From NCBI RefSeq assembly GCF_027532025.1, contig NZ_JAPZSY010000055.1, positions 1 to 64,000 on the forward strand: 64,000 nt of DNA. Direction: 5' to 3'. Both the position numbers and the translations under genes were made by a program. Each line of letters begins with the position of its first letter. Position 1 is the first letter of the stretch. This DNA is from Inhella sp. GTDB taxonomy: Bacteria > Pseudomonadota > Gammaproteobacteria > Burkholderiales > Burkholderiaceae_C. Under the pieces are notes generated by a model. That model saw nothing but the letters and a program-made list of their open reading frames with translations. It did no database searches and was not told the DNA's origin. Below, in pieces: positions 31,832 to 35,649 of this stretch.

Positions 31832-33886
31832 ATGAGCACGCCCTACCCCCACCTGCTGCAGCCCTTGGACCTGGGCTTCACCACCCTGCGCAACCGCGTG
31901 CTCATGGGCTCCATGCACACGGGCCTGGAAGACGGGCGCAAGCACTTCGAGCGCGCGGCCGCCTACTTCGCCGAGCGCGCGCGCGGCGAGGTGGGCCTCA
32001 TCGTCACCGGCGGCTTCGCGCCCAATGTGGCCGGTTGGGTCAAGCCCTTTGCCGGCACGCTCAGCACCTCGGGCGCCGCCGCGCGCCACAAAGTGATCAC
32101 GAACGCCGTGCACGCCGAGGGCGGCAAGATCGCGCTGCAGATCCTGCACGCCGGCCGCTATGCCTACCACCCGTTCAGCGTGGCGCCATCGCGCATCCAG
32201 TCGCCCATCACGCCCTTCAAGCCCTTTGGCCTGAGCGAGCGCGGCATCGAGCGCCAGATCCGCGCCTTCGTGCGCTGCGCCGTGCTGGCCCGTGAGGCCG
32301 GCTACGACGGCGTGGAGGTGATGGGCAGCGAGGGCTACTTCATCAACGAGTTCCTCTGCCAGCACACCAACCAGCGCACCGACCCCTGGGGCGGCTCGTA
32401 CGAGAACCGCATGCGCCTGCCGGTGGAGATCGTGCGCCGCATCCGCGAGGCCGTGGGCCCCGACTTCATCGTCATCTACCGCATCAGCCTGCTGGACCTG
32501 ATCCCCAACGGCCAGACCTGGGACGAGGTGATGCAGCTGGCCCGTGCCATCACCAAGGCCGGCGCCACCATCTTGAACAGCGGCATCGGCTGGCACGAGG
32601 CCCGCGTGCCCACCATCGCCACCAGCGTGCCGCGCGCCGGCTTCGCTTGGGTGACCAAGAAGCTGCGCGACGGCCTGCGCGCCGAAGGGCTCAACATCCC
32701 CGTCATCACCAGCAACCGCATCAACATGCCCGACGTGGCCGAGAGCGTGCTGGCCGAAGGCTCGGCCGACATGGTCAGCATGGCCCGGCCCTTTTTGGCC
32801 GACGCCGAGTTCGTCAAAAAGGCGCGCGAAGGCCGCGCCGACGAGATCAACACCTGCATCGCCTGCAACCAGGCTTGCCTGGACCACACCTTCAAGAACC
32901 AGATCGCCAGCTGCCTGGTGAACCCCCGCGCCGCGCACGAAACCCTGCTGCGCATCACCCCCGTGCCGGCGAAGAAAAAGGTGGCCGTGGTGGGTGCGGG
33001 GCCCGCGGGCTTGGCGGCCGCCACCACCGCCGCCGAGCGCGGCCACGCCGTCACCCTGTTCGATGCCAGCAGCGAAATCGGCGGCCAGTTCAACCTGGCC
33101 AAGCAGATTCCGGGCAAGGAAGAGTTCCACGAAACGATCCGCTACTTCAGCAAACGCATCGAGCGCACCGGCGTGACGCTCAAGCTCAACACCCGCGTCA
33201 GCGCCGACGACCTCAAAGGCTTCGACGAAGTGCTGCTGGCCACGGGCGTGACGCCGCGCAACCCGCGCATCCCCGGCCAGGACGACCCCGCCGTGGCGCA
33301 CAAGGTGCTGGGCTACATCGACGTGCTCAAGGGCCTCAAGCCCGTGGGCCAGAAGGTGGTCATCGTGGGCGCCGGTGGCATCGGCTTCGACGTGGCCGAG
33401 TACCTGCTCGAAGCCGGCCACAGCCTGACCCTGGACCCCGCCGCCTGGCAGCGCCACTGGGGCGTGGGCGACCCGGCCGCCACCCCTGGCGGCTTCGTGC
33501 CGCCGCAGCCCGGCGCGCCGCGCCGCCAGATCACCCTGCTGCAGCGCAAGGCCGGCAAGCCGGGCGCGGGCCTGGGCAAGACCACGGGCTGGATCCACCG
33601 CGCCATGCTCAAGATGATGAAGGTCGAGATGCTGGGCAGCGCCAACTACGAGCGCATCACCCCCGAGGGCCTGTTCGTCACCTGGGGCGAGAAGCGCCAG
33701 GACGGCCAGCTCATCGAGGCCGACACCATCGTGCTGTGCGCCGGCCAAGAGCCGCTGCGCGAGCTGCAAGCGCCGCTGCAAGCGGCGGGCGTGCGGGTGC
33801 AACTGATCGGTGGGGCGATGGAAGCGGGCGAGTTGGACGCGAAGCGGGCGATCCGGCAGGGGACGGAAGTGGCGGCGGCGTTGTGA
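31832..33886 (+). CDS. fadH: NADPH-dependent 2,4-dienoyl-CoA reductase
   Basis: The 684-residue flavoprotein reduces 2,4-dienoyl-CoA during beta-oxidation of unsaturated fatty acids. It shows an N-terminal old-yellow-enzyme barrel with FMN ([39 protein letters not shown]), and a 4Fe-4S cluster bound by C342-x2-C345-x3-C349-x11-C361. FAD- and NADPH-binding Rossmann motifs follow ([31 protein letters not shown]). Start ATG follows GGAG. The 3' end (33776-33886) is duplicated at 35540-35649, so the final 37 residues could have been exchanged during insertion of the following segment. Confidence 0.96.
33776..33886 (+). repeat. fadH 3' end, copy 1 of a direct repeat
   Basis: These last 111 bases of fadH recur at 35540-35649 with about 12 substitutions and one single-base deletion by my count. 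Several differences are synonymous, so the second copy evolved as coding sequence before becoming a relic. Confidence 0.9.
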
Positions 33887-33912
33887 GGATCGCCAACCTG
33901 CGGCGCCACTCG

Positions 33913-34773
33913 ATGACCTCGGCCCGGAGGGCCGCACTTGGCCGCCTGCTTTGCTGGGTGGCAATGGCTGGGGTGGCGTCCATGAGCGCCGCGTCTGAGC
34001 CCAGCGGGGCGACTGGCAAGCCATGGAACTTCGTCTTCTTCAGGGGCCTGCATGTCTTGACGCTGCCAGCCGCGACGGACGAGGGCGAAGCGGCGCCAGC
34101 CCTCTTCATCGATGACGGCAACCAGGTGGTTTTGAATGAGGCGCTGCTCAAGCTCGGCGACCCGCTCTGGAACTACGGGCAGGGGCAAGAGCCTTTGGAA
34201 AGCCGTGTTGAGCGCGTTGAGGCGGGGTCGAGCTATGGCTGCGAGATCCCGCCCACGGTGAAGGGGGGTTGGCATGACGTCATGTCCACGCAGCCGATCG
34301 CCGGGCGCGATGCCGGCTGGCGCGAAGCCAACCCGGAAGAACGTCGTGTGGGACTGGGCCTGCTGGCCCGACGCGTGCTCGTAAAGCCGGAGCTCAGCAC
34401 CCGCCGCATGGCAGAGATCCTGTCGGAGGCCCGGGTTCGTTCGGCCCAACTCGCCAACGGCGAAGGACGGGCACTGGTCATCGACAGCGTCGTCCACTGG
34501 GAAGGCGCCAGCGTCGCGGTGCTGCTGGTTGCGGAACCCGGCGACGGCGGCGAATGGGTGTTGACCTGGGACACATTCAACCTGGGGGGCGCCAACGACT
34601 CCGACGGAGCGCCCGAAACCTCCGAGGTGTTGGCCAGCGCCGATCTGGACGATGACGGCGTCGACGAGCTGTTCGTCAACACGTCGGCTTACGAAACGAG
34701 CCACATCAACGTGGTCAAGCGCACAGCCGGTGCCTGGAAGCCCTGGGGCTGGGGGGGCGGCGCCAGCTGCTGA
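33913..34773 (+). CDS. Uncharacterised exported protein with a VCBS/FG-GAP-like motif
   Basis: The 286-residue protein has an N-terminal signal peptide (MTSARRAALGRLLCWVAMAGVASMSAA) and no recognised enzyme domain. Near the C-terminus DLDDDGVDELFVN has the calcium-binding DxDxDGxxE pattern of FG-GAP/VCBS repeats; only one repeat is visible. The middle is acidic and hydrophilic. It lies within the segment bracketed by the two fadH tails, 26 bases downstream of the fadH stop, and may have arrived with it. Confidence 0.65.
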   Translation: MTSARRAALGRLLCWVAMAGVASMSAASEPSGATGKPWNFVFFRGLHVLTLPAATDEGEAAPALFIDDGNQVVLNEALLKLGDPLWNYGQGQEPLESRVERVEAGSSYGCEIPPTVKGGWHDVMSTQPIAGRDAGWREANPEERRVGLGLLARRVLVKPELSTRRMAEILSEARVRSAQLANGEGRALVIDSVVHWEGASVAVLLVAEPGDGGEWVLTWDTFNLGGANDSDGAPETSEVLASADLDDDGVDELFVNTSAYETSHINVVKRTAGAWKPWGWGGGASC

Positions 34774-35132
34774 TCTGGGGCTGCTTGTGCCATTCGTGTG
34801 CTCCGTTCCGCCAGCCTCCGCTTGGCGATTCGGTCGCAGACCTTGCAGGGCCAAGCTCGCCACGTTTCCAACCCACGGAGCGCCGCGATGATCGTCAAGC
34901 GGCGTCCCTGGCGGCACGAACAGCGTGTCGTGGTTGACAGGCTTTGCCCAGGTCAATCTGCAGCGCTCGTCCATGGCCCCGGCGCCACCTGCTTGCTGAC
35001 CTGGGGCGAACACGAAGACGTGGCATCGGACAAGCGCCAGACGAGGGTCTCGCACACGAGCTTTCCCGATCCTGGCATCGACGTGCTGCCCCCTGCTGGC
35101 TGAAACTCGCCCATCAACCGTCGGTTCGCCCC
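34774..35132. other. Intergenic stretch inside the fadH-tail-bracketed segment
   Basis: This 359-bp region has no gene I can support. Short open frames are present on both strands, including a 101-codon one at 34798 without family resemblance. Composition is lower in GC than its neighbours. It may be a relic of an inserted element. Confidence 0.45.
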
Positions 35133-35543
35133 ATGCTTGATCTGTTGGACCCCTTGGCCGGCGCCCTCTTGGTGCTGGCTGGCGTTTACCTGCTGACACT
35201 CGGCACCCTGGCCTGGGTGCGGCCAGCTGGGGCGGCGCGCTACCTGCTGGGCTTCGCGACCACACCGGCGCGTCACGCGCTGGAGTTGACCTTGCGGCTG
35301 CTGCTGGCCTGGGCCTTGTGGCGCTGGTCCGCGTACAGCCCCTGGCCCGAGGCTTTGGCCGGCGCGGCGGGGGTGCTGAGTGTCACGACGGTGGGCCTCG
35401 CCGTGCTGCCCTGGCGCTGGCACCAGCGCTTTGCCGCTTGGTCGGTGCCCCGGGCGCTGCCGCACCTGCGCCCGATCGGTTTGGCCTCCGCTGCGATGGG
35501 GCTGTTGCTGCTGGTGGCGGTGGCGCGGGGCGGGCCCGGCTGA
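35133..35543 (+). CDS. Small hydrophobic membrane protein
   Basis: The 136-residue protein has four likely membrane segments (LDPLAGALLVLAGVYLLTLGTLAW; LTLRLLLAWALWRW; AAGVLSVTTVGLAVLPW; LASAAMGLLLLVAVA) and no recognised family. ATG 35133 is chosen because it begins the hydrophobic portion. Its stop codon lies in the first bases of the second fadH-tail copy. Function unknown. Confidence 0.6.
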   Translation: MLDLLDPLAGALLVLAGVYLLTLGTLAWVRPAGAARYLLGFATTPARHALELTLRLLLAWALWRWSAYSPWPEALAGAAGVLSVTTVGLAVLPWRWHQRFAAWSVPRALPHLRPIGLASAAMGLLLLVAVARGGPG

Positions 35544-35649
35544 AGGCCGCCGGGGCGCGGGTGCAGCTCATCGGTGGGGCGATGGAGCCGGGCGAGTTGG
35601 ACGCGAGCCGGGCGATCCGGCAGGGGACGGAAGTGGCGGCGCGTTGTGA
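35540..35649 (+). repeat. fadH 3' end, copy 2 (decayed) of a direct repeat
   Basis: This is the second copy of the fadH tail: GGTGGGGCGATGGA and GGGCGATCCGGCAGGGGACG are identical to copy 1. A missing base near the end destroys the FadH reading frame at the stop. The stretch is a fossil of the original fadH 3' end or a donor tail, and marks the right edge of the 1.65-kb insert. Confidence 0.9.

What the first reader, a model, noticed from the sequence alone, without database searches (positions are those of the whole stretch)
33776..35649. fadH 3' end duplicated around a 1.65-kb segment
The last 111 bp of fadH recur at 35540-35649 with about 12 substitutions, several synonymous, plus a frame-breaking deletion. 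Between lie two uncharacterised genes (an exported VCBS-type protein and a small membrane protein) and a gene-poor 359-bp gap. Integrative elements often restore the 3' end of the gene they enter, leaving a displaced copy; the divergence suggests one tail came from another strain or species. No integrase remains.
Basis: partly seen in the sequence, partly recalled or inferred. Interest (0 to 1): 0.65.

Follow-up and report, generated by a model that had tools for sequence, protein, structure and literature searches.

The report
Decayed duplication between two housekeeping genes
The repeated end of the fadH gene is real, but it is one of two leftover fragments of a duplicated fadH-to-lepB junction with extra genes lodged in it: an ordinary scar of recombination, with no sign of a working mobile element.

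Summary
The last 111 bp of fadH recur at 35540-35649 with 12 substitutions and one frame-breaking deletion, beyond chance (0 of 500 shuffles). The key relative is the sister species Inhella crocodyli, where fadH is uninterrupted and lepB starts 127 bp after its stop. The order is fadH - [exported-protein gene] - spacer'/lepB' - [membrane-protein gene] - fadH' - spacer'' - [small ORF] - lepB: a duplicated fadH-lepB junction around an insert, decayed reciprocally. A displaced-tail integrative element does not predict host lepB sequence inside the insert. No tyrosine integrase was found on this contig, and no relative checked has a comparable tail copy. The tails share three substitutions absent from five other Inhella genomes, so they probably split after I. 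crocodyli diverged, or come from a closer donor; the lepB start gives a contrary hint. The interval resembles a minimal mobile element site. Mechanism inferred; low interest.

The parts
31829..33886 (+). fadH (2,4-dienoyl-CoA reductase / OYE-family), intact
   Evidence: Pfam Oxidored_FMN 1.3e-81; 98% aa identity to G001 = I. crocodyli
33776..33886 (+). fadH tail, copy A (functional end of the gene)
33913..34773 (+). gene for a putative exported protein lodged directly after fadH; distant homologues (28-29% identity) in 2 of 298 other family genomes, both of one other genus
   Evidence: no accepted Pfam, NCBIfam or PHROGs family
34789..34925 (+). relic of the fadH-lepB spacer plus the first 38 bp of lepB (lepB' start codon at 34888)
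   Evidence: 74% identity to I. crocodyli spacer-lepB start, E 1.8e-13; 0 of 500 shuffles
34926..35538 (+). insert at the join of the two junction copies; holds the membrane-protein gene; 34926-35132 shows no homology to lepB above shuffle level
   Evidence: 193 of 500 shuffles reach the score against the sister, 407 of 500 against the window's lepB
35133..35543 (+). full-length small membrane-protein gene; best homologues at about 40-45% identity, at an unrelated place in I. crocodyli
35540..35649 (+). fadH tail, copy B: frame-broken relic
35713..35737 (+). remnant of the fadH-lepB spacer belonging to copy B (25-bp match, 24 identical, to the sister's spacer); small, supporting evidence only
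   Evidence: E 8.8e-5; alignment; 5 of 500 shuffles reach the score
35861..36067 (+). small ORF (68 aa) without homologues found; may not be a gene
   Evidence: 0 of 298 other family genomes; no family
36105..36785 (+). lepB (signal peptidase I), intact
   Evidence: Pfam Peptidase_S26 4.1e-34, TIGR02227 8.4e-35

Best explanation
The segment is the decayed remainder of a local duplication of the fadH-lepB junction (end of fadH, spacer, start of lepB; roughly 260 bp or more) with foreign or relocated DNA at the novel join (the membrane-protein gene, 34926-35538). The left copy kept a working fadH and lost all but the start of lepB; the right copy kept a working lepB and lost all but the end of fadH. 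DNA was also added inside each spacer copy: the exported-protein gene on the left, the stretch with the small ORF on the right. SHOWN: the two relics, their order, and the short uninterrupted junction in the sister species. INFERRED: the mechanism, namely recombination without an integrase (additive recombination of incoming DNA anchored on one homologous side, or template switching during replication), and the order of the events. The relics themselves most likely do nothing; fadH, lepB and the membrane-protein gene are intact reading frames.
For: I. crocodyli has fadH stop, 127 bp, lepB start. Relic of spacer + lepB start inside the segment (E 1.8e-13; 0 of 500 shuffles for 34789-34925 as a whole, for the 49-bp lepB-start part and for the spacer part). 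Tail relic 35540-35649, followed by a 25-bp spacer remnant (weaker, 5 of 500 shuffles). Of 9 sites where the tails agree against I. crocodyli, 3 (columns 43, 58, 93) are shared changes, since four other Inhella agree with I. crocodyli there. Copy B looks unconstrained: 8 B-only changes, several altering an amino acid, and a deletion, against 4 A-only changes, all at third codon positions. No comparable tail repeat in 81 relative loci (80 distinct) with at least 300 bp downstream of fadH.
Against: The lepB-start relic does not group with the window's own lepB: of 49 sites, 4 are shared by relic and sister against the window's lepB, 0 by relic and window's lepB against the sister, which a simple duplication within this lineage would not favour. 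Most of the 9 sites at which the tails agree against I. crocodyli are not shared changes: at columns 24, 33, 54, 99 and 105 most of the four other Inhella have the tails' base, so I. crocodyli changed. Gene conversion between the tails could mimic recent duplication. lepB is more diverged from the sister (dS 0.42) than fadH (0.155), lrp (0.077) or part of putA (0.119), so the right copy may have come from another strain. The extent of the original duplication cannot be measured.
Confidence: 0.6

Rival explanations
1. Import of a second allele: the right half (fadH' - spacer'' - small ORF - lepB) came in as linear DNA from a close relative, recombined on its homologous side and was joined illegitimately, with the membrane-protein gene at its edge, to the start of the resident lepB; the fadH tail was then shared between the copies by gene conversion.
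For: lepB dS 0.42 against 0.155 for fadH; tail A differs from the sister at 13 of 108 sites against 2 of the preceding 108; the lepB-start relic is nearer to the sister than to the window's lepB. Homology-facilitated illegitimate recombination is a described process (PMC3240628, start of abstract in the search listing).
Against: Divergence is patchy along fadH: 86 of 1945 sliding windows are at least as divergent as the tail, and the best change-point lies elsewhere. Another gene nearby (30044-30814) has dS 0.575, so high divergence is not specific to lepB. A donor with the membrane-protein gene next to a truncated fadH would itself be rearranged; no such arrangement was seen in the relatives' loci looked at.
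Confidence: 0.28
2. Integrative element that entered the 3' end of fadH, restored it with its own tail (copy A), displaced the resident tail (copy B), and lost its integrase.
For: Position at a gene's 3' end, direct repeat of the tail on both sides, rarely found genes between.
Against: Host spacer + lepB start lies inside the supposed element. PF00589 matches 8 places in this genome, none on contig C25. No comparable tail duplication in 81 relative loci, 80 distinct. No integrase or phage family among the inserted proteins. No tRNA or tmRNA gene in the window as an alternative attachment site.
Confidence: 0.08
3. Assembly artefact joining two places.
For: The genome is a 144-contig draft.
Against: The copies differ by 12 substitutions and a deletion; searches of the genome found no further copy of the tail or of the segment (40 of 139 and 40 of 180 candidates scored); both flanks are collinear with the sister.
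Confidence: 0.02

Closest known systems
Minimal mobile element (MME) sites of Neisseria (Saunders and Snyder 2002, as described in PMC3898611; passages read)
   Same: Interval between two conserved genes that holds different genes in different genomes, without a recognised mobility gene: exported-protein and membrane-protein genes here, nothing in I. crocodyli, a large opposite-strand gene in G003 and G004.
   Different: Here species are compared, not strains; and the interval carries relics of both flanking genes, which the passages seen do not mention as a feature of MMEs.
Additive insertion by homology-facilitated illegitimate recombination (PMC3240628, start of abstract seen)
   Same: One homologous side and one illegitimate side could leave a duplicated junction around new DNA (inference).
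   Different: Not demonstrated here: no donor sequence and no breakpoint signature found.
Integrative elements that use gene 3' ends (recalled; no call)
   Same: A displaced copy of a gene's end at the far side of inserted DNA.
   Different: No tyrosine integrase on the contig, host lepB sequence inside the insert, no sign of the same target in the relatives checked.

Membership tests
Minimal mobile element site | Different whole-gene cassettes between the same two conserved genes in different genomes | tested here: met
   lepB was found near fadH in 4 of 6 Inhella genomes (window's own, I. crocodyli, G003, G004), with three kinds of content; in G002 and G005 no lepB was found in the 9.4 kb and 5.3 kb available downstream of fadH. 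Species level only.
Minimal mobile element site | Incorporated solely by homologous recombination | not testable with these tools
   Needs several strains of one species; divergence along fadH is too patchy to place a breakpoint.
Site-specific integrative element | Integrase gene with the element | tested here: not met
   PF00589: 8 matches in the genome, none on C25. Serine integrases were not searched for genome-wide; the inserted proteins match no accepted Pfam, NCBIfam or PHROGs family.
Site-specific integrative element | Only the target gene's end is duplicated; the insert holds no host sequence from beyond the target | tested here: not met
   34789-34925 is homologous to the host spacer and lepB start.
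Decayed duplication | Both members of the duplicated stretch recognisable in the same order and orientation | tested here: met
   fadH end ... spacer'/lepB' and fadH' ... spacer''/lepB; the spacer'' remnant is only 25 bp.
Decayed duplication | The two copies are each other's closest relatives | tested here: inconclusive
   Yes for the fadH tails (columns 43, 58, 93); for the 49-bp lepB start 0 sites for and 4 against.
Transposon / IS insertion | Terminal inverted repeats and a short target duplication at the borders | tested here: inconclusive
   No shared word of 6 bp or more within 20 bp of the borders of the three inserts; in the random border pairs of the same call about half (484 of the 996 counted) had one. 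Inverted-end scores of 8-12 were computed without a shuffle control, and the borders are known only approximately. No transposase family among the inserted proteins.

The most novel reading that the evidence does not exclude
The fadH-lepB interval is a recombination hot spot where whole cassettes are taken up additively, and the two relics record an event in which one homologous anchor and one illegitimate join added a second allele of the interval beside the resident one. If so, paired relics of both flanking genes could serve as a searchable signature of integrase-free gene gain in environmental Burkholderiales.
Probability: 0.15. Interest if true: 0.4.

Novelty: new member of a known kind. 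Interest (0 to 1): 0.17.

Why it matters
It is a small worked example of how genes can come to lie between housekeeping genes without a recognisable mobile element, leaving truncated ends of both neighbours as scars. It also cautions that a duplicated gene end is not by itself evidence of site-specific integration: here the sister genome showed that the start of the next gene had been duplicated too.

Tried and rejected
Rejected: the stretch 34926-35132 as a longer decayed lepB. A low-penalty alignment runs through it, but its score is no better than shuffles (193 of 500 reach it against the sister, 407 of 500 against the window's lepB). Rejected: dating or placing an imported segment from fadH divergence. 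The tail is denser in differences than the rest (13 of 108 against 79 of 1944, Fisher p = 0.0008), but 86 of 1945 sliding windows are at least as dense and the best change-point is elsewhere.

Led nowhere: plasmid and phage collections for the exported protein (no match) and plasmids for the membrane protein (no match); PHROGs; Rfam in 33000-37000 (0 matches); promoter/terminator scan (0 promoter-like sites, 2 terminator-like sites against a shuffle mean of 1.5); the neighbourhood of the membrane-protein homologue in I. crocodyli (other genes). A weak membrane-protein hit near a lepB in G157 was judged by eye, from the ORF list, to be a chance match; it was not tested further. Other stretches fetched were used only for the protein comparisons.

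Literature: 'minimal mobile element' with 'homologous recombination' and 'flanking genes' gave 0 papers, the first term alone 23, of which 6 were listed; 'tandem duplication' with 'gene remnants', 'horizontal gene transfer' and 'flanking' gave 1 unrelated paper; 'Inhella' with 'genome' gave 16, of which 10 were listed, none about this locus by title.
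Full report
WHAT WAS CHECKED. The window lies on contig C25 of a 3.51-Mb, 144-contig genome of the genus that holds Inhella crocodyli: handle G001, listed as same genus, has the contig length and fadH coordinates of NZ_SACM01000004.1. The last 111 bp of fadH (33776-33886) recur at 35540-35649 with 12 substitutions and one deletion. BLAST gives E = 7.6e-34, and 0 of 500 shuffles reach the score. A search of the whole genome (40 of 139 candidates scored) found one other strong place, this one; a third match covers 43 query bases, most of them upstream of the tail.

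THE SISTER GENOME. In I. crocodyli FadH is 98% identical. Its gene ends at L012:8617 on the minus strand and lepB starts at 8489, 127 bp after the stop. In G003 and G004 a large opposite-strand gene (1013 and 1018 aa) lies between fadH and lepB (it reads like a sensor with a GGDEF-type end, label by eye). In G002 and G005 no lepB was found in the 9.4 kb and 5.3 kb available downstream of fadH. Tail copies were sought downstream of fadH in 84 relative loci, of which L013 and L019 are the same place, so 83 are distinct. Three had under 300 bp downstream. Of the other 81 (80 distinct), 59 had no match and 22 only matches of 11-21 bases; the window's match in the same search was 94 bases. The downstream sequence available varied from about 0.3 to 6 kb.

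THE SECOND RELIC. The window's 34789-34925, in the 'gene-poor gap', matches the sister from 26 bp after the fadH stop into lepB (142 columns, 73.9%, E 1.8e-13). The part 34877-34925 also matches the window's own lepB start at 36094-36142 (78%). The spacer part and the lepB part are each beyond all 500 shuffles. Homology ends at about codon 13 of lepB; the following 207 bp are at shuffle level. On the right, the fadH tail relic is followed, after 63 bp, by 25 bp that match the sister's spacer at 24 positions, although 5 of 500 shuffles reach that score. The order is therefore fadH - exported-protein gene - spacer'/lepB' - membrane-protein gene - fadH' - spacer'' - small ORF - lepB.

THE ADDED GENES. 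The exported-protein gene (33913-34773) has distant relatives in 2 of 298 other genomes drawn from the family, both in one other genus; the DNA of the segment found no match to it in the five other Inhella, and the protein none in plasmids or phages. Its GC3 is 0.81 against 0.94 for fadH. The membrane-protein gene has hits in 8 of 298 other genomes, two of them weak (E about 1e-3) and one of these judged by eye to be chance. Its I. crocodyli relative sits among other genes. It is full length: five homologues end within 6 residues of it relative to the aligned end. The 68-aa ORF has no relative in 298 other genomes, and its GC3 of 0.61 is a further reason to doubt that it is a gene. No accepted Pfam, NCBIfam or PHROGs family was found for any of the three.

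WHICH TAIL IS NATIVE. With I. crocodyli as third sequence, 9 sites have A = B against the sister, 8 are B-only and 4 A-only. Of the 9, three (columns 43, 58, 93) are shared changes of the two tails, since the sister and four other Inhella agree there; column 36 is mixed; at the other five (24, 33, 54, 99, 105) most of the four have the tails' base, so the sister changed. The three shared changes make the tails each other's nearest known relatives, by recent duplication or by gene conversion. Copy B has run free: several of its changes alter an amino acid (translations) and it has a deletion, while the four A-only changes are all at third positions. The lepB start gives a different hint: 4 sites join the relic to the sister, 0 join it to the window's lepB. 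lepB is also more diverged from the sister (dS 0.42) than fadH (0.155), lrp (0.077) or the part of putA compared (0.119), but a further gene nearby has 0.575, and identity along the region is patchy. Import of the right half is therefore a live rival, not a result.

WHY NOT AN INTEGRATIVE ELEMENT. An element that restores a gene's end leaves a displaced end at its far side and carries its own DNA between (recalled). It would not be expected to carry the host's spacer and lepB start. PF00589 finds 8 matches in the genome, none on this contig; serine integrases were not searched for. The borders of the three inserts show no shared word of 6 bp or more within 20 bp, which is also what about half of random border pairs show, so this says little. 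The same fadH end was not seen to be duplicated in the relatives checked.

CONTEXT. Along the 42 kb broadly collinear with I. crocodyli, several other intervals between matched stretches also differ in length, for example 2019-6428 (4.4 kb against 0.8), 17639-25125 (7.5 against 4.1) and 36785-37735 (0.95 against 5.5), beside 33887-36094 (2.2 against 0.12) (matches of 150 columns or more). The locus is one of several variable intervals. That fits the description of minimal mobile element sites as regions between conserved genes with different cassettes (PMC3898611, passages read), although here only species, not strains, could be compared.

VERDICT. Real, correctly located, and partly misread. 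The best account is a decayed duplication of the fadH-lepB junction around added DNA, by recombination without a recognisable mobile element; the mechanism is inferred. It is an ordinary genome scar of low interest.

Noticed in passing
window 59857-60069 (+) with 62795-62965 (+); window 6229-6429 (-) with 2050-2229 (-); locus L124 (G000:C143) about 2325-2564 (-) with 1429-1610 (-): Two short repeats (R1 about 213 bp, 85-88% identity over the well-matched part; R2 about 146-181 bp, 90-91%) occur as a pair in the same order and orientation at three places of this genome, flanking unrelated DNA of about 2.7, 4.0 and 0.7 kb (right: an OmpA-like gene; left: a LysR-like gene and a large lipoprotein-like gene; labels by eye). 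Neither was found in the 5 other Inhella genomes. In a family search R1 had only matches of 32-39 bases in 6 of 298 other genomes, but that search scored 2 candidates a genome and missed the known third copy, so the negative is weak. R2 also has a weak 73% match on C127. At the left place I. crocodyli has about 0.8 kb between the same flanks. Looks like conserved ends with exchangeable cargo; not explained.
   Followed up: partly
window 36786-37735 and sister L012 2345-7808: The interval downstream of lepB also differs: about 0.95 kb here against 5.5 kb in I. crocodyli, where it begins with an opposite-strand gene that reads like the GGDEF-type gene found between fadH and lepB in G003 and G004 (label by eye).
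   Followed up: no
window 17639-25125: A 7.5-kb stretch with no match of 150 columns or more to the I. crocodyli contig stretches compared, where the sister has 4.1 kb between the same flanks.
   Followed up: no
window 29907-30888: A patch of low identity to I. crocodyli (61-83% per 200 columns; gene 30044-30814 dS 0.575, dN 0.174) between better conserved neighbours, suggesting mosaic ancestry.
   Followed up: no
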